Source of the DNA: Hysterium pulicare CBS 123377
Taxonomy: Eukaryota > Ascomycota > Dothideomycetes > Hysteriales > Hysteriaceae
Length of the DNA stretch: 27,652 nucleotides
NCBI GenBank assembly: GCA_000467715.1
Contig: AJFK01000241.1
Span: forward strand, 1 to 27,652
Reading direction: 5' to 3'
Positions 5,748 to 21,105 of the stretch are shown in pieces. The position numbers and the translations under genes are program-made. The notes below the pieces were generated by a model. It had not been told where the DNA came from, did not search any database, and was given only the letters and a program-made list of their open reading frames with translations. How positions within the stretch are numbered: position 1 is the stretch's first letter; every line of letters starts with the position of its first letter.

Positions 5748-7935
5748 CTAAGCATCCCCAACCTTCCCACCCTTTCCCTTGTCAAGCTTTCTTCGCTTCT
5801 TTCTCAATGCCTCTGCCTCCTTATCTCTCTTCTGCGTCCCATGTTCGATCCTATCCAGCAACTTCCTCTTTCGTTGTGGCAACATCATCTTCAATCTCTC
5901 TCTCTCCTCTTGCTCCTGCTTGCGTTTCTTCTCAGCTTTCTTGCGGACTTCGGACTTCTTGTTCTTGGGGGCGCTTGCGCCGTTTAGGCTGTCGAGTGGG
6001 ATGCCGGTAGCTTCAGCTTCCAATTCGCGTTGGTGTTGGAGTCTCAAGGCTTCGGAGTCGGAAATATCGGATTCGGCTTCGGATTCTATACCATCCCATT
6101 CTTCGCGTGCGATGGCATGCTCGTCATCTTCCTCTTCTTCGGACTCGGATTCCGAGACTGCAACGTCCATGCCTTCGCCTGTTTCGATTGAGTCTTCACG
6201 GTCAAGTAGGGCATCTCCATTCTGTGCTCTATTCTGCTTAGGCGCTTCAACTTCGCTTTCCGCATCCTCTTCGCCTTCCACTTCTTCGTCAAGCTCTGCC
6301 TCAAACTCCTCAGCCTCGCCTTCCCGCTCTTGCTCCTCAAGTGGTAGATTTGGATCATATTGGCCTTTCTTAGGTTTCACCCAAGGACTTAGATGCGGTG
6401 GTAATGTCGCTCCAGGCGCATACAAATCTGGTCTTAGAAGCTTCCCTTGATTGACGCAATCCCAGACCCACTGAGGCTGTATATATGTCCGCCCCGGCAT
6501 CCTTGATCGCGGCCATTGTGCCTTATGTGCAGGCGCATCCTCGTTTTCTGCTGGCGGCTGGTCGGGAACGGCTGGTAGACTGTCGTGTGGAAGGGCTGGT
6601 CGGTCAACGATTTGATGGGTTATTGATGGGTCAGATTCGTTGGTTGTAAAGGCACCGTCGCCGAGGATACTATCCCATCCAACGCGTTTACATCCGAAGG
6701 CTTTGAGGATGAATTCGAGGGGTGCACGGGGCGTTTCTCGAGAGATGTAGAATGTGAATGGCGCAAATAAAGAGGCCGCTTCTGTGCTACTTGCTTGTGG
6801 CTGGGGTAGTATATCTGCATCTTGTGCTGTGGTCTCGAAATTATCAATCGCTTCGGTGTTTTCGTCTTCGTCAACTTTTACGAGCGATGTTTGTTCCTCG
6901 TTTTCGGTTCCTTCTGCGGTTGAATTGGTAGCGATTCGATCCGCCTCTGCTTGGGCTTCCGCGGATGTAATTGTTTGTTGTACATCACCATCTGTCGTGG
7001 GTTCTTCGTCTCTTGCCACACCTTTTCCTTCCAGCTGGAACGCTCCTAGCTCGCCTCCGCGCTCATCGCTGCTCGCATTGAATTTGGGTGGGTATACGAG
7101 GCCCACCGAAGTATAAAGCCTGAAGTTAACGAACCCAAGAAGTGTCGTGTAGAATTCGATGAATGTGCCCATTATCCGGAAATCGATATCTCCGCCAGTC
7201 CTTTGCACAAATTTGTATGGCACGAGCCATAATATATCTTGTCCTTGTATGGTCGCCTGGTAGTAGATACCTTTTATCGAGAGGAAAGTTTTTCGCAACG
7301 AATGGGAAACGATCACGTAATGTTCGAACTCAAGACACAATCGTTGGCAGAGAGCGATCGTCTTAGGGGGTACATGGGGCGTGGACGGCAAGTTGCCGAA
7401 CAGATATAGCATAGACAAGGCATCATCCAGGTCTCGCAGAGCGTCGATGAAGGTCGGATATCTTTCTTTTATGATATGATCGAGTGTGATTTTGGGAATG
7501 TGCGTCTTCTCTAACCGGGATGCATCTCCGACTTCGCCTCGGCCAAGGGCACGGCCAATTTTCTTCGCTACAGCTTTATGTTCTCGGAACTTGTTCAAGA
7601 GGGGTTCGTGAAAAAGGTATTGGATGTCTTTCGTGTAGTAGAACGTGGTAGATGGAGTGGCGGTCTTGGAAACCTTCTTCTTGTTTCGAGGTTCGCGAGG
7701 ATAGATACCCTTGAAGATGCATAGTCTCCGGAAATCTGGTAGAGATATTTGCAGCTTCTTCACCGCTCGAGTTCTGGTTATGAAGTTCTTAGCCGCACCA
7801 GAAGTTCCTACGAAGCATTTAGCACAAGTTCAGGGATTGGGACTGCATATAATGGAAAATGGGTTGAGCGGCTGCAGAGATCTTGAGGAACGAGGAAGAA
7901 GCATTAGTCTTACCTTTTTTCTTTATGCGCCCCAT
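5748..7935 (-). CDS. NOP7: Pescadillo homolog, 60S ribosome biogenesis factor
   Basis: The exons are 7914-7935 (22 nt, from the ATG) and 5748-7807, joined across a 106-nt intron, giving 693 residues. The tiny first exon restores the expected start MGRIKKKG, followed by [20 protein letters not shown]. Pescadillo/Nop7 acts in the nucleolus with Erb1 and Ytm1 (PeBoW complex) in pre-rRNA processing and 60S assembly. The N-terminal pescadillo domain fills roughly residues 5-265 ([28 protein letters not shown]). A BRCT domain lies at about 355-465 (FYISRETPR ... [13 protein letters not shown]). The C-terminal third is very acidic and ends in a Lys/Arg-rich coiled coil typical of the family. Its start faces the PIG-U gene across about 190 bp. 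Family assignment is secure. Confidence 0.95.
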
Positions 7936-12641: not shown

Positions 12642-15600
12642 TCACAACCCCTCGATAGCCCTCCTAAGCACCTCCAGCGTCCCCTCCCCAAACCGCTCCA
12701 CCTCTTCTCTAAGAATCCAAGCAACATCACTCTGCACCCCCAGCGGCACAAACACTCTCCCTTCCCCCTTCTCAAGCTCCATCCTCTCCCCAAGTCTGGA
12801 GGTATGTTCCCAGTCCTTTGCCGCTTTCTCGGCATCTTGGATAATCCTTTGCGGGATCCCGCACATGGCTGCACAATGCATACCGAAGGACCCTTCAGCG
12901 ACGCCGCTTTCGAGTTTATAGAGGAAAGTGACTGTTTTTGTGGCATCGTCGACTTGGATACGCATTCTCTTTGCGGCGATCTCGGGGTGGGTTTCGAATT
13001 CGCGGGCCAGAGAGCGGTAATGGGTGGCGAAGAAACCCACACAGCCGACTCGGGTAGCGACATCATGTAGCACAGCCTGAGCAACTGCAACGCCATCGTA
13101 GGAGGAAGTTCCACGACCAAGTTCATCGAGGATGACGAGAGAGCGCGGCGTGGCTTCAGAAAGGATCTTTTGGGTTTCGGAGAGCTCGACGAAGAATGTA
13201 GATTGTGCGGCGAATATGTTGTCGTTAGCGCCGAGACGTGACATGATACGGTCGATTGGGGTCATCCGAGCCTCTACGCAGGGTAGGTAGCAGCCGATTT
13301 GGGCGAGAATGACGGCTACGCATGTCATTCGAAGAATTGTGGATTTGCCAGCTGCATTGGCTCCTGTGAGTAGATCGATGTTCGGGGAACGGCCGCCAAG
13401 ATGGATATCGTTGGGGATGAAGTCGTCTACATTGTTCATGTATGGATGTCGTAGCTCTGAGAACTCAATGACAGTGCGCTTATCGTTGACAAAGTTGGGA
13501 CGGCAGCTGGGTTCACCGAGAGAGGCTGAAGCTTTGGCGAGACTGATGAGGCAGTCGAGTTGGGCGATGATCTTAATTGCGGCGAGCCAGGTGGTATAGT
13601 CCTCGTCGAAACGCTGGTAGAAGCGGCTAGCAACTTCTCGGACGATTTGACCGTGGGTTTCCTGCGCTTCTTGAAGAACTCGAACAAGCTTGCGGAGTTC
13701 GGGGTTGTAGAAGCGTTTGACCTTCGCTGTGGCTGACATCTGATCCCAATTCTTGGGGATGTTCTTGATCTTGATGGGGACCTCTAGCTGGTAGATCTCC
13801 TTTCCATTGTCTCGGAAGCAGATGGCGGTAGAGCCTAAATCTCGCCTGGCCTTTTTCAAGTGTTTGTCAAGCTCTGCTAGGCATTTATCAATCTCTGCTT
13901 GGCTGTCATCGAAGTCTTCTTCCACTCCGGGCTCTGGAACCAGGATACCATCTTGCTTTGCCTTTTCACGATTGAAGGCGGACTTCCATTTGTTAAGTGC
14001 TGCGGCGAGATCTGGCATAGATGAGATGAGCTGCCCAATGACGCCCTCACCCCCTCCGAAGGAAGTCAATAGACTCATGGTATACTCGATTTGCTCAAAC
14101 CCTTCGAGAACCTTCAGGAAGTCTTGAGCTTTGCATCGACCAGCATGCACCCGAGAGATGAGACGTTCCAAATCTGGCAACTTGCTCAAAGAAGATGTGA
14201 ACTGATCCATAACGGTGTTGTCTGCATTAAGCGAATCAACAGCATCAAGTCTCGCATTGATCTTCTTCGCGTCGGCTAAGGGATGACAGACCCATTGCCG
14301 AAGTAGACGCTTCCCAAATGGTGTAATACATCGATTGAGCATAGAGAACAAAGTGCCTTCGGTCGAGCCATCAAAACTATTTGCGAAGATTTCAAGGTTG
14401 ATCAAGCTTTGCCCATCGAGAACCAAGCTCGTTGCTTTTCGAATGGGATCGTACCACTGGAAGTTACCTAAGGTAACGAGGTCACGCTCGATTTTCAGAG
14501 TCCTCAGGTATTGTAACAGAGCACCAAAGGCCGACATGACCAGCTCTTGCTCTCGTGCTTCGCGTAGCACTGGTGGCCATGCTTCGATGTTGTCCTGGTC
14601 AAACGAAACGAAGTACTCGCTTGCGTCAATCTCTCGGCACGTTATATCCGCTGACCAAAACTCCTTGGTCGGTTTCAAGGAATTCCATATTGTTGTAAGG
14701 CCAGTGTTGTTCTTGAGAATTCGAAGAGCTTTGGCGGAGATGCAGGACTTCTCCAGTAATAGCTCACCAGGTCGGAGTTGAGCTATTAAAGTCTCAAATT
14801 TGGTCATGTCGATGTCGTCGGTAAACTCGCAAAGATGGAACTGTGCTGTGGCAGTATCGACGAAGGCAATACCAAAAGCAGGGAGATTGTCCCGGTCGAT
14901 CTCCTTGATTGCTACACAGTAGGTCGACATATCATTCGTGAGCATACCGGTATCGACTAAGGTACCAGCAGTGAGAACAGCAGCCAGCTCTCTCCTGATA
15001 ACCTTTTCCTCTTTTTGAGGCTTCACGGCCTTCCCAGGCTTCTTATCATCTCTTTCGCGCATCTCCTTTGCCAACGCGGATTCCATTTGATCAACTCTGG
15101 CAACCTTGTAACCCTTGGCCACGAATTGGCTTGCCCATTGATCTAATGATGCTTCAGGTACACCAACCATCCTCATATTGACCCGATCTGTGAGTTTCAA
15201 GTCGAATAGTTGATGTCCAACCGTAGCATCATTCTCGTACAGTTCGTAGAATTTTCCCTTCTTGAAGAACACAATGCTGTCCCAGAACTTCTGCTTGATC
15301 TCCCAGTATTGCTTCTCGAAAGGTGAGAACTTGCTCCATGCCAATGGGGGAATGTAGATTGTTCGAGGGTCATACTCAGGGTGTCCAGGAGGGTTTCGGT
15401 CAGCGTCGAGTATATTGGCGAGCCATGTATACCGTTGGTCCGGCTCTGTCTGGTGAGCTTTCTGTTTCCCTTTATTTGCGTTTGACTTCTTTGCCGGAGG
15501 GGAAATCGAACGTGGATTCAGGGGCTCGAGGTTCTCTGGGTCATACGTCCATTGCTGTGCCGTTGAGACACTCGGCATCTCGACATCGTCATCAAACTCT

Positions 15601-16516
15601 TCGATAGGAGGTGGAGGCGGGCTACGCTTCTTGCGAGATTGGGACGGTTGCTGGCGTTTACGTTTCTGCGGTACTACTGCTTCTTCATCAGAGTGATCTG
15701 GCGCGATGGAGTCGTCCATGTCTACCATGGGTTAGTGAACCAGGTAAATTGATAACGCGAGAAAAGCTAAACATAGTCGAGGTAGCACGCTGCGAACGCG
15801 TATTTGCCCATGGTTCCAATGTTGCACCAATCGGCCAAAATATAGAAAGAGACAACATACCATCATCAAGCATAGCTTCTTGTGTAGCAGCATCTAGACC
15901 AAATTCATCATCTGAATCTTCCAGGCTGACCCGCCTTCTTTTCGTCGCTCGTCCCTTCCTAGCGTTGGCGGAGATGGGCTGGAAAACCTCGTCTTCATCA
16001 TCGTCTGACTCGGCGTAGTTGACGGCTTTCTTAGACTATCAAGATCATTAGCACCTGTAGCATGACAACTTGGAGGGACGGTCTCAATCTCACCTTTCTC
16101 GAGGGACTGCTGAAAGCGACGCCTGCAACCTCTGACGAGATACCGTCAGCTACAATCCCGGCAGGGGTGACAGGAGATGGCAGACCATTCTCCTTGTTTT
16201 TCCCTATCCCGCTATCGCTCTCGCTGGGTACGGGACTTGAGGGTTCAGGAGCATCGCTGCTAGGAGCAGGCGTTAAAGCTGAGCTGGGTCGTCGATTGAC
16301 GAGAGATTTCTTCGTCGAGGATGCAGGAGCCTTCTTGACGGGAGTCGGTTCGGGCGGAGAAGATTTGGGAGCGGGACTTGAGCCTGTCTCCGACTTCCTT
16401 TGGAAGAATCCCAGAATGGATTTCTGGTTCTTAGTGGGTTGAGAAGATGATGGCTGTTTCTTGAGAGTTGGAGGTCGAGGAGTCGACATCTCATTGCCCT
16501 CAATGCCACGAGCCAT
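12642..16516 (-). CDS. MSH6: DNA mismatch repair protein MSH6
   Basis: Exons 16094-16516, 15861-16035 and 12642-15721 (introns of 58 and 139 nt, both in phase) give 1225 residues, normal for fungal MSH6. MSH6 pairs with MSH2 as MutS-alpha and binds base mismatches and small loops in the nucleus. Visible motifs, N to C: a PCNA-interaction box (QKSILGFF, residues 31-38), an acidic/basic linker (KRRRVSLEDSDDEFG), the mismatch-contacting FYE (about 357-359), the Walker A P-loop (TGANAAGKST, about 985-995) and Walker B (VILDELGRGTSS, about 1063). The ATPase ends with FFATHYRSLAREF. The first ATG gives nine extra residues before MSTPRPP; either Met could be used. The whole C-terminal half is intact. 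Identity is secure. Confidence 0.96.
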
Positions 16517-16681: not shown

Positions 16682-17728
16682 GTGAACATTAGCTTAAAAC
16701 CTAGGGCGGGAACGATGCCAACTCCAACATCCCCAGAAATCGACCCTGGATGGACACAGCTGTCGGTGAAGAGGAATGAAGTTATTATTGTTTCCGCAGA
16801 TTGTCCCGAACGTCCATGCAGAGAAATTCATGCTTTGAAGGATCTGCCTTACGAAATACGAGTGGACTATACAGAGAGTGTAAGGCAGGTATATTGCGAC
16901 TTTACGCGCTGGTGGATTCTTACTCATCGATCTCTTCGAATCCTATCCACAGTTCATGTACATCCTCAAAGGACATGGCAGAGCACACTTGGCCCGATGG
17001 ACGCCCAGGGTGAACCCAATCTGAGAGAGGAAGATCATCCAACCTGGTGTCTCTGGTATATGGGAAAGAGCGACTGGACCCAAGGGACTCTTCCGCTCGA
17101 AGGCTGTCCTTATAATGCTTCGGGCGACACTATACCAACCTTGATCATATTCAATCAACTGAATCTCCCTTCCATTTGGGACTCACTGGGATCAGGATCG
17201 GAACCATCGAGGCTATTCTTCCTTATCCTTTCTTTCATACGCGCATGTGGTCAACGGAGATGCATTCAGTCTACCTCAAGATCTTCGATCCAATCGGAGA
17301 AGCAGGCACCTTCAATCAAAAGGATGCTAAAGGTATGCGGAAGGGCAAATACTCCATGCGATGGCTTCTCACTACTTTTACGACCGGAGACAGGTTCCGC
17401 GCTTATATTCGAATCCGACTCTCGAATGGAGAACGGAAGTAGATAGAAGACTGCTTGAAGACTTGTCTATCCCTTGTCACAGCCCATGCTTTTTTAAGGC
17501 TACTAACGACCAGCAAAGTCTTTGCCTGCGACAGCGAGAGTTGGAGACATCATTTTTCTTTTATACGGTGGAAAAGTCCCGTATCTGTTGCGAAAGAAAC
17601 CTCTCTCATCCACAAACGAGGTCTCGGAGAACCAGTATCACTTCGTGGGCGAGTGTTTCGTCGAGGGGAGAATGGATGGTCTTGCTATTAATGAACAGAT
17701 GTCTCCGGAGACCTTTACCCTAGTCTAA
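16682..17728 (+). pseudogene. HET-domain protein relic (C-terminal half, frameshifted)
   Basis: The reading resembles the part of fungal heterokaryon-incompatibility (HET) proteins that follows the HET domain. The segment VDYTESVRQVYCDFTRWWI (about 16860-16920) is followed by SLRILSTVH and DHPTWCLWY. The match then jumps frame near 17168 to GIRIGTIEAILPY. A stop occurs at 17440-17442. After more frame changes the typical HET C-terminus appears (PATARVGDIIFLLYGG ... QYHFVGECFVEG, ending ETFTLV at 17726). At least three frame changes have no room for introns, and the HET domain itself (YxALSYxWG, IDxxCINQ) is absent. It is a truncated, decayed copy lying directly upstream of MSH6, in opposite orientation to the intact HET gene. 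Confidence 0.75.
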
Positions 17729-17893
17729 AGTACGAACAACATTGCTGGTTGCCTGCAACGGACAGCTGATCGCTGCCGCCTTTGTTGACATTCACATGCC
17801 TGATATCGGCAAGGCCACTACCAGCTCCAAGATCGAGTCCTCGTATTACTCGTCTTACGTCTCGTCGCGAAGCACACCGATGTCATAAATTAG

Positions 17894-17898
17894 TCGTT
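17894..17898. repeat. Target-site duplication, left copy (TCGTT)
   Basis: TCGTT directly precedes the 5' LTR and is repeated exactly after the 3' LTR at 18349-18353. A 5-bp duplication is normal for LTR retrotransposon integrases. Confidence 0.85.
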
Positions 17899-18000
17899 TG
17901 TTGAAAGTAGCTTAGCCAGTGGCTAATGCGGACCTTGGTTGGCATATAAAACCCCTAAATGCGCGTCCAACCTTCCTCTCTTCTTCAATTCACTTTAATA
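17899..18000 (+). repeat. 5' LTR of the miniature element (102 bp)
   Basis: It matches the 3' LTR along its full length, with a few substitutions, mostly C/T, and one 4-bp length difference (near 17951-17958). Its end reads CTTTAATA where the 3' copy reads CTTCAACA, two C-to-T changes. It contains a TATA-like GCATATAAAA and a CT-rich run. Confidence 0.85.
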
Positions 18001-18023
18001 GATTATAAGCCCGGGCAGCGCTC
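18001..18023 (+). other. Possible primer-binding site
   Basis: This sequence directly follows the 5' LTR. It does not start with TGG, as sites for an intact tRNA 3' end do. Its reverse complement contains CTTATAA within a D-arm/anticodon-like context, which is compatible with priming by an internal tRNA fragment, as known for copia and Ty5. The tRNA is not identified. Confidence 0.3.
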
Positions 18024-18059
18024 TTATATCTCCTCCTTTTATACGAACTAGGGGAGCGT

Positions 18060-18204
18060 AGAGCTACTTACTACTATATACTAAAGAGCAAAGGCCTAAG
18101 GGCTAGGCTATAGAGCTATTTACTACTGCATACTAAAGAGCGAAGGGCCTAAGAGCTAGGCTATAGAGCTACTTACTACTGCATACTAAAGAGCGAAGGG
18201 TAGA
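18060..18204 (+). repeat. Tandem repeat of about 53 bp inside the element
   Basis: Two full units (18060-18111 and 18112-18164) and most of a third (18165 to about 18200) start AGAGCTA and contain ACTACTGCATACTAAAGAG. The copies differ at a few bases. No open frame is kept across them, so this is non-coding structure within the mobile element. Confidence 0.85.
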
Positions 18205-18250
18205 GCTATTAACCTTAATAAATGAAGGCCACCTCCTAATCTAGGGGGAG

Positions 18251-18348
18251 TGTTGAAAGTAGCTTAGCTAGTGGCTAATGCGGACCTCGGTTGGCATATA
18301 AAATGAATGCGCGTCCAACCTTCCTCTCTTCTTCAATTCACTTCAACA
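18251..18348 (+). repeat. 3' LTR of the miniature element (98 bp)
   Basis: It is preceded by the purine tract CTAGGGGGAG and ends TTCAACA, which is the inverse of its start TGTTGAA. It is followed by the right target duplication. Confidence 0.85.
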
Positions 18349-18353
18349 TCGTT
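18349..18353. repeat. Target-site duplication, right copy (TCGTT)
   Basis: This is an exact copy of the 5 bp before the 5' LTR, so the element is a complete insertion and not a recombined remnant. Confidence 0.85.
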
Positions 18354-18414
18354 TTAGAAGATAGGTCCGCGCCTAGCACCTTCTGCATATCGCACGCTTC
18401 CAAATCTCTCACCT

Positions 18415-18597
18415 AACCCGATCATTTTGCTCGTAATCAAGAGCCAAATCAGCATTATCTCGCAATCTATCAGCCAATGTCAGATACCCTGGTTTTAACT
18501 CCTTTTGATGGAGAATCTGGGGCGCAAAGCGATCAGCAAGTTTTGAAAAGCATTTCAGGCAACGATTATTATTCACTATCAGCCTTGGGATCTCCAT
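18415..18597 (-). pseudogene. Coding-like fragment of unknown origin
   Basis: On the minus strand a short frame reads like conserved protein (CLKCFSKLADRFAPQILHQ, then LKPGYLTLADRLRDNADLA), ending in a possible splice donor (TTAG|GTGAGA). Just upstream, in another frame, lies a second protein-like run (LQEKIVREDGDPK). Both the frame change and the lack of any further exon suggest a relic, possibly cut by the LTR insertion. I do not recognise the family, and chance composition is possible. Confidence 0.3.
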
Positions 18598-18746: not shown

Positions 18747-21105
18747 TCAAATAATCTCAATTTGAACTAGGTCTGTGGGCTTGGTCTTTGCCCACACCTC
18801 GTTTTTCATCGCTCCAATAACAATAGCATCGCCCACGAGCTGGTACTTCCCGTCAGGGATGCGTCGACGAAGGATAATTGGACTGCTGCATCCTGGCACC
18901 AGAAAGACTTCATCGTGAAGACGTGCTCTGAGCGTGGCCCAACCAATGCCAAAGGAATCATCATCCAGATACATTAAGCGCATGTTCTGAGATGCCATTC
19001 TTTTCAGATCCCGAAACAGGCTGCCCGCTGTAAGACAGCGGCTGCTCCAAGCAGACATTCCACAATGAAAGAATGGATGATAAAGGCGTTTAGCATGATG
19101 CTTCAGATATCGGCCCCCAGCGAAAAAGTCTCGGTTTGCACAAAGCCATTTCGTTAGCTCGTCTTCCACGTTTTCGGGATCGTAGTTTCCGTGAGTCTCG
19201 AGGAAGGCACTGGTGAAGCTGTAGCCTCGGACTTCCCCCTTGGACAAAAAAAAGCATCTAGTAAACCAGTGCCAAATAGGATCGTTGTAACAGTAGTCGT
19301 TTTCGAGCATTGCATAATACATCATGTTGGAGATATCAAGTTTTACGCAGGTTTGAGCCCAGGCGGTATCACACATCGGGAACTCGCTTCCTTCCGGTTC
19401 TGACCATGTCCTTCCCAGGCTGCGTACAGACCCGATGCGGCGTGCGGATGAGTGCAAAGCGACTCCTCTGATTGAAACTGCTGCAGGTGCGGTTCCTGTT
19501 GCGGACCATCTCCATTTCGAATTTCCCTGCACCGAAAGACGATAAATGCGATGATCCGGGGGATATTCATCATAGCTAAAGTAATCGGGAGACCATGATG
19601 GCATGCCTGAAATTTGATCGTGATGGGAGGCAAGTAGAATAATGTTAAGGGAACGTGTCTCGATGTGGGATCGAGTCATTGAGGTCGACAAATCGTCAGT
19701 CTTAAGTTTGTAGTCGATCTCCGAGAAATATTGCAACGCATCCGGCACTATGCCCAATAGACCAAAGACTCGGTCATGCCGACTATCACATAATGACTCT
19801 TTCGTCTCATAGAGTAAATCTAGTAGTGGCATTGGCTTGGCATTCTTCCAGGATTTTCGAATGTCGAAGATGGCATTGACACGATTCCATTGCTGCGGAT
19901 CAGGTTGACGGGCAAGTAGATCAAGAACCGTATGTACCTTATCAGCCCTTACGATCGAAGTACCCACGAGTAACTCAAGATTGTGTCCTAGCGCAAACTC
20001 TTGTATGATCCAGATTCGATTCCAGTATTCATCATTGCAGAAAACCTCAAAAGCTGACATAGTTGCTCTGTCTTTGAGTAAAGTCCCCACTTGGGCCGCT
20101 TGGTTGTCAAGTGCGAGTGTGGGATCAATGAGCGTGAGTAACCGCACAATCCTTTCGGCATCATCTTTTGGCGTGTTGACTGCAACTAGCACTGGCCGTG
20201 CCCCGGCATATATCCCCTGCATGCGCAAAACCTGGGCACTGCGCTCCTCGACACTGGTTTGGTTGATACAAATCGCATCAATCTTGATCCATGTTAGCAA
20301 GTTGACCCATCCGCGCAACTATAGTAGTATTGCAACGTCATGGAGAGCACACGTACCCAGATCAAAGTGTATTGGAGCGAACGCATTCTCCGAAGAATAC
20401 TTGCAAGATTGGGTCTTACTTGCATCTCTTTTCCATCAAGGAAGATGGCGACTACAGCCTCTTCACTTCCCCATGTGTAGGATAGAGCAGTGTAGCCTTC
20501 TGCTCGTGCTGCAAGTAGTGAAATATGTATCGACTCAAGATGAAGCGCAGTGGAATCGTCTCTTGAATGAAGGACCCGAAGCAGCCGTATGTCATTATTT
20601 AAAAGTGGTGAGTATACATATGCCTTGGCTGTTTGAACGTAGCTCTTGCCAGCAGCGTTTGCGTCCTGATCAGATTCAGGTGCTACTGGTTGATCAGTTA
20701 CTTTTTGTTGTACTGGTACTTCCCCGATAGAAATTGTGCTTTCTTCGCGTGGCTGACTACGCTTGAAGAGCCTTGTACGACGAGTAGGAGTCGTACTATG
20801 GCCGGCTACGGTGAGATTTGAATTATCAGCAATTGCATCGATAATCCTATAATGGTCAGTTTGCAGTGATTAAGACTAATGGAGCCATACTTCTTTGTTT
20901 TAAAAAGTGACCGTCCAGAACGGTTCCGGCGAACAAGGGGTTCCATACAAAGCGAGATAAGGAGGGGCAGGCTAAACCATACTGCCAGAGCGAATATAGT
21001 ATTCCGCCCCTCTATACTAGGAGGCATTGAAAACGATATACTAAGTGTAAGGAGGATAAGGACACCAGTACCAAAAAGGCAACATCTTCCATGAGGGGCC
21101 GACAT
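18747..21105 (-). CDS. HET-domain protein with two N-terminal membrane helices
   Basis: Exons 20891-21105, 20357-20846 and 18747-20282 are joined across introns of 44 nt (20847-20890) and 74 nt (20283-20356, branch GCTAAC), both in phase, giving 746 residues. HET domains trigger cell death in vegetative incompatibility and are TIR-like in fold. The hallmarks are present and cross the second splice join: YTALSYTWGS (about 190-199), NLASILRRMR, then LIW|IDAICINQ (236-243), ER..QV..M..IY and DRVFGLLGIVPD. The C-terminus has the usual YQLVGDAIVIG. Two hydrophobic helices (about 8-27 and 36-54) precede RRNRSGR and a Ser/Thr/Pro-rich linker, so the HET domain should face the cytosol from a membrane. 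The start at 21105 has a better context (ACAAAATG) than 21207, which would add 34 residues. No NACHT or repeat domain is present. Confidence 0.85.

What the first reader, a model, noticed from the sequence alone, without database searches (positions are those of the whole stretch)
17894..18353. Complete TRIM-like miniature LTR retrotransposon with perfect 5-bp target duplication
Seen directly: about 100-bp terminal repeats, TG...CA ends with short inverted repeats, a purine tract next to the 3' LTR and TCGTT duplications on both sides of a 450-bp non-coding element. TRIMs are well known in plants but much less documented in fungi, and this one is among the smallest complete LTR units one could expect. 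The intact target duplication argues for a real insertion by a parent element in the same genome.
Basis: partly seen in the sequence, partly recalled or inferred. Interest (0 to 1): 0.75.

Follow-up and report, generated by a model that had tools for sequence, protein, structure and literature searches.

The report
Fungal miniature LTR retrotransposon with solos
A 450-base non-coding jumping element in a fungal genome is real and belongs to a small family of dispersed copies; it is an ordinary new member of a known class of miniature retrotransposons for which no coding partner was found.

Summary
Window 17899-18348 is a two-LTR, non-coding element flanked by TCGTT. The host assembly (37.2 Mb, 596 contigs) shows close LTR copies at 10 places (a lower bound): this copy, a second two-LTR copy (C404, LTRs 102/102 identical), one copy without a 3' LTR (C42) and seven solo LTRs. 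Of the 9 insertions with both ends, 6 have perfect 5-bp duplications and 3 have 4 of 5, all different; flanks share nothing.

It is best read as a Copia-type TRIM. The first 14 internal bases of C404 are complementary to bases 27-40 of the host's inferred spliced initiator tRNA-Met (half-tRNA-type primer site); this copy keeps 12. A purine tract precedes the 3' LTR; much of the interior is a 53-bp tandem array. Relative to C404 this copy has C-to-T changes concentrated at CpA, RIP-like. No coding partner was found, a soft negative. TRIMs are already reported from fungi, ascomycetes included. New member of a known kind.

In passing, and more surprising: the three tRNA genes looked at (two initiator Met, one Ile-UAU) carry GT-branch-AG inserts resembling spliceosomal introns, besides the usual anticodon-loop intron.

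The parts
17894..17898 (+). left target-site duplication TCGTT
17899..18000 (+). 5' LTR, 102 bp; starts TGTTG, its CA end is mutated to TA in this copy; TATAAA at 17945
18001..18014 (+). primer-binding site, 12 of 14 complementary to bases 27-40 of the inferred spliced initiator tRNA-Met (C404 copy 14 of 14)
18059..18200 (+). internal tandem array, period 53, 2.7 copies
18243..18250 (+). polypurine tract AGGGGGAG next to the 3' LTR
   Evidence: read; also present in the C404 copy
18251..18348 (+). 3' LTR, 98 bp, TG...CA; TATAAA at 18297
18349..18353 (+). right target-site duplication TCGTT

Best explanation
A Copia-type terminal-repeat retrotransposon in miniature (TRIM). Inferred cycle: RNA polymerase II starts in the 5' LTR at the TATA box; the short RNA is packaged by Gag of an unlinked autonomous Copia element; a 5' half of initiator tRNA-Met (cut in the anticodon arm) primes minus-strand synthesis next to the 5' LTR; the purine tract primes the plus strand; the helper's integrase inserts the DNA with a 5-bp duplication. 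Later LTR-LTR recombination left solo LTRs, and RIP-like mutation decayed the two-LTR copy in the window. Shown: anatomy, dispersed copies, duplications, solo LTRs, complementarity to the host tRNA, mutation bias. Inferred: transcription, packaging, trans-mobilisation, recombination, RIP.
For: Anatomy. LTR at 10 places; duplications 6 of 9 perfect, 3 of 9 with one mismatch, controls 0 of 72 and 2 of 72; no shared flanks. C404 LTRs 102/102 identical. Primer site: C404 14 of 14, C189 12, C42 12, diverged C485 relative 10 of 14; the genome's one degraded Copia element (C348) 13 of 14. TATAAA in 11 of 12 LTRs (read off the alignment). No long frame: longest ATG frame 30 codons here, 41 in C404. 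Mutation bias C189 against C404: 36 C>T/G>A against 11 reverse; 15 of 22 C>T at CpA (15 of 31 CpA sites, 7 of 94 other C).
Against: No helper sharing LTRs found: RVT_2 one place (C348, different LTR, no 3' LTR found), rve none. The copy number is small. G>A at TpG is not clearly raised (4 of 17 sites), and TA/AT is high in C404 too (1.52), so the RIP index does not separate them. One C-T or G-A mismatch stands in the duplications of C404, C110 and C94. The primer match beyond 14 bases stops. No RNA or protein data.
Confidence: 0.92

Rival explanations
1. A deletion derivative of a full-length Copia element that arose locally and never moved as a miniature unit; the solo LTRs come from the full-length parent.
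For: No autonomous element with these LTRs was found that would tell parent from derivative; only two copies have both LTRs.
Against: C189, C404 and C42 sit at three unrelated sites and share the same short interior (250-253 bp between LTRs in the first two, about 85% identical) with the tandem array; C189 and C404 have their own duplications.
Confidence: 0.06
2. A pol III-driven TRIM (Helenus-like, tRNA-derived sequence in the LTR).
For: The LTR holds an A-box-like word with one mismatch (11 and 21 of 1000 shuffles as good); Helenus also makes 5-bp duplications and occurs in fungi (PMC10886601, passages).
Against: No B box (4 mismatches, 989 and 993 of 1000 shuffles as good), the diverged C485 LTR lacks the A-box word, TATAAA is kept in both; no Rfam match at E<=5.
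Confidence: 0.03
3. A chance pair of short repeats, not a mobile element.
For: None beyond its small size.
Against: Ten places, duplications and unrelated flanks.
Confidence: 0.005

Closest known systems
TRIMs of Cochliobolus heterostrophus (PMC4112212, passages)
   Same: Ascomycete, non-autonomous, mostly Copia-related (7 of 9), 5-bp sites for most Copia elements, solo LTRs present.
   Different: There the seven Copia TRIMs are tied to a coding family (Copia-1_CH); here no coding family shares the LTRs. Sequences were not compared.
Plant TRIMs / SMARTs (PMC4717578, passages; SMART length from PMC10886601)
   Same: Short LTRs, PBS, PPT, no coding; 278 of 289 plant subfamilies also lack a known coding partner.
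   Different: Half-tRNA-type primer site and internal tandem array here; the tandem TRIMs in those passages are arrays of whole elements. SMARTs are smaller (292 bp).
Helenus (fungal TRIM with tRNA-like LTR; PMC10886601, passages)
   Same: Fungal, two short LTRs, PBS and PPT, 5-bp duplications, solo LTRs.
   Different: No tRNA-derived promoter found here.
Fungal Copia groups GalEa and FunCo1 (PMC5445492, passages)
   Same: FunCo1 also pairs with an internal region of a tRNA.
   Different: FunCo1 site is for tRNA-Lys; fungal GalEa have no PBS but a hairpin. Here initiator tRNA-Met, as in Drosophila copia (recalled).

Membership tests
TRIM | two LTRs around a short interior, under about 1000 bp, no coding capacity | tested here: met
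   450 and 457 bp; longest ATG frames 30 and 41 codons
TRIM | PBS after the 5' LTR and PPT before the 3' LTR | tested here: met
   PBS 14 of 14 in C404, 12 of 14 here; AGGGGGAG in both
TRIM | dispersed insertions with target-site duplications | tested here: met
   6 of 9 perfect, 3 of 9 with 4 of 5 bases
TRIM | moved in trans by an autonomous LTR retrotransposon | tested here: inconclusive
   no coding element with these LTRs found; soft negative
Ty1/Copia superfamily | 5-bp duplication, TGTTG..CAACA ends, internal half-tRNA-Met primer site | tested here: met
   degraded Copia C348 has the same primer site, 13 of 14. These traits are suggestive, not exclusive to Copia.
Ty1/Copia superfamily | Copia-order pol genes | not testable with these tools
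   the element is non-coding and no coding relative with its LTRs was found
Helenus / TRIMp3 | tRNA-derived A and B boxes in the LTR | tested here: not met
   A-box-like word only, B box at chance level; no Rfam match

The most novel reading that the evidence does not exclude
The 52-53-bp tandem array is a cis-acting module (for example for packaging or dimerising the RNA) that lets the miniature be carried by unrelated Copia helpers that prime from the same half of initiator tRNA-Met; the array would then explain why it is kept in all three short copies and in a diverged 726-bp relative, and why no helper shares the LTRs.
Probability: 0.12. Interest if true: 0.5.

Novelty: new member of a known kind. 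Interest (0 to 1): 0.3.

Why it matters
It adds a small, apparently recently active TRIM family, with a half-tRNA-type primer site and an internal tandem array, to the fungal record, and offers a case where solo LTRs stay nearly identical while a two-LTR copy shows RIP-like decay. As a kind of element it is ordinary. The primer search exposed tRNA genes with spliceosome-type inserts, which would matter more if confirmed: RNA polymerase III transcripts for an essential tRNA would depend on the spliceosome.

Tried and rejected
RNA folding of the interior is no better than shuffles: z -0.36 for C404 (74 of 200 shuffles as good), z 0.55 for the window copy (140 of 200). Rfam on 17800-18450: no match at E<=5. 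LTR pattern in IMG/VR and GTDB contigs: 0 matches in each, expected for a fungal element. Comparison with C348: best E 1.2, so no shared sequence beyond the primer site. First attempts at the primer tRNA failed: a recalled initiator-tRNA pattern gave 0 matches, and 7 places with RGGCTCATAACC held no tRNA by ARAGORN, because the genes are interrupted. Aligning C42 over its 3' end is unreliable after about base 350 of the element. 5.8S search to name the fungus: none, 39 of 1289 candidates scored; the species remains unknown, and 'fungus' rests on gene content such as the HET domain and on my judgement.

LTR divergence was not turned into an age: the 5 LTR-LTR differences here are all transitions, mostly RIP-like, so not clock-like.

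Full report
Anatomy. The element spans 17899-18348 between two copies of TCGTT. The LTRs are 102 and 98 bp; 93 of 98 aligned positions agree, the 5 differences are transitions and the 3' LTR has lost 4 bp. The 5' LTR's CA end reads TA. The 250-bp interior starts with the primer site, contains a tandem array of period 53 (2.7 copies, 18059-18200) and ends with AGGGGGAG. The longest ATG frame is 30 codons. It lies between an ORF ending at 17723 and the low (stop) end, 18747, of a minus-strand ORF with a HET domain.

Copies. The LTR query gave 12 matches at 10 places in the host assembly, a lower bound by the tool's own note: C189 (window, two), C404 (two), C42 (one) and single LTRs at C139, C107, C359, C32, C110, C94 and C197. 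The interior query found C189, C404, C42 and a diverged relative at C485. C404 is 88% identical to the window copy and its LTRs are 102/102 identical. C42 has LTR, primer site and array, then similarity stops short of the purine tract and no second LTR follows. C485:117427-118152 (726 bp) shares array units, the stretch before the purine tract and parts of the LTR; its 5' LTR is largely unrecognisable. C423 holds one LTR-like fragment, 76% over about 90 bases. These last two were left out of the count of 10.

Insertion. Of 9 insertions with both ends, 6 show identical 5-bp flanks and 3 show 4 of 5; the nine differ from one another. Pairing the left flank of one with the right flank of another gave 0 of 72 at 5 of 5 and 2 of 72 at 4 or better. 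BLASTN of up to 1500 bases of flank on each side of the 10 places gave no match between different flanks at E<=1e-3. So the would-refute conditions of the finding were tested and not met.

Primer. The base after the 5' LTR begins GGTTATGAGCCCGG in C404. Two initiator tRNA-Met genes of the host, once their inserts are taken out, fold as 72-base tRNA-Met(CAT) (ARAGORN), and bases 27-40 are exactly complementary to that site: 14 of 14 in C404, 12 in the window copy, 12 in C42, 10 in C485. The only RVT_2 place in the genome, C348, is a degraded Copia element with a 129-bp LTR-like stretch (identified by eye), the same primer site (13 of 14), Pol_BBD and RVT_2 matches, and no second LTR found on its contig. 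Outside the primer site it does not resemble the TRIM (best E 1.2). Priming by a 5' half of initiator tRNA-Met is the mode I recall for Drosophila copia; no call showed it.

Promoter. TATAAA stands at LTR position 47; 11 of the 12 LTRs keep it, C197 has CATAAA (alignment), and the C485 LTR has it too. An A-box-like word (one mismatch) is rarer than in shuffles (11 and 21 of 1000), but the B box is at chance level (989 and 993 of 1000), so a pol III promoter is unlikely.

Mutation. Against C404 the window copy has 22 C>T and 14 G>A but 5 T>C, 6 A>G and 5 transversions in 449 columns. Fifteen of the C>T fall at CpA: 15 of 31 CpA sites against 7 of 94 other C (Fisher p 2e-6). On the other strand TpG is not clearly raised (4 of 17), and direction is inferred from one relative, not from an ancestor. 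This looks like repeat-induced point mutation acting mainly on one strand, but CpA deamination by another route is not excluded. Solo LTRs differ from each other by 0 to 6 of 102 bases (21 pairs).

Helper. rve: 0 matches; RVT_2: 1; RVT_1: 3. These are six-frame searches with a limited first look, and repeats may be missing from a 596-contig assembly, so the negative is soft. In plants 278 of 289 TRIM subfamilies lacked a coding partner too (PMC4717578, passages).

Known context. TRIMs are reported in fungi: nine in Cochliobolus heterostrophus, seven Copia-related (PMC4112212, passages); three of five Boletales genomes (PMC5689174, passages); rusts (PMC10067951, passages); and Helenus (PMC10886601, passages). 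I saw no internal tandem array in the passages read, which is no proof of novelty.

tRNA genes in passing. A D-arm pattern gave three places, all read. C41 and C323: initiator tRNA-Met with inserts of 58/54 nt after base 25, 22/21 nt at the usual anticodon-loop site, and 54/58 nt before the T arm. C433: tRNA-Ile(UAU) with a 34-nt anticodon-loop intron and a 52-nt insert in the T loop. The five extra inserts begin GTRRG, carry CTRAY with its A 10-13 nt from the end, and end YAG; the three anticodon-loop introns do not fit. The pattern was written after seeing them; composition shuffles fit in 0, 0, 0, 0 and 1 of 20000. The two Met genes differ by changes on both sides in one acceptor pair and two T-stem pairs, and T runs follow the three genes, which speaks for working genes. 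Against: unspliced, ARAGORN reads C41 as Val, C323 as Lys and C433 as nothing, Rfam finds no tRNA in the unspliced pieces, only three genes were seen, and there is no RNA evidence. Searches and passages of PMC4090602, PMC11782384 and PMC13149111 showed no report of spliceosomal introns in nuclear tRNA genes; the library lacks most subscription journals.

Noticed in passing
G000:C41:53497-53706 (L067, L070), G000:C323:32812-33017 (L069, L072), G000:C433 around 128950-129112, minus strand (L068, L071); approximate ends: Two initiator tRNA-Met genes and one tRNA-Ile(UAU) gene hold, besides the anticodon-loop intron, five further inserts of 52-58 nt with GT...CTRAY...AG ends that look like spliceosomal introns; removing them restores full cloverleafs, and the two Met genes differ by compensating stem changes.
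   Followed up: partly
G000:C348:1898-5814 (L032): Degraded Copia element, the only RVT_2 match in the assembly, with a different 129-bp LTR-like stretch but the same initiator tRNA-Met primer site, no integrase match and no second LTR found.
   Followed up: partly
G000:C485:117427-118152 (L031): Diverged 726-bp relative with the 53-bp units plus a second 38-bp tandem array of its own.
   Followed up: partly
G000:C42 (L030), 3' of the tandem array: Third copy with a longer tandem array that breaks off before the purine tract.
   Followed up: partly
G000:C423:21269-21355 (L033): LTR-like fragment, 76% identical, perhaps an older LTR lineage.
   Followed up: no
window 18747-20318, minus strand: HET-domain ORF next to the element; MutS-like (12642-15728) and Pescadillo (5748-7763) genes also lie in the window.
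   Followed up: no
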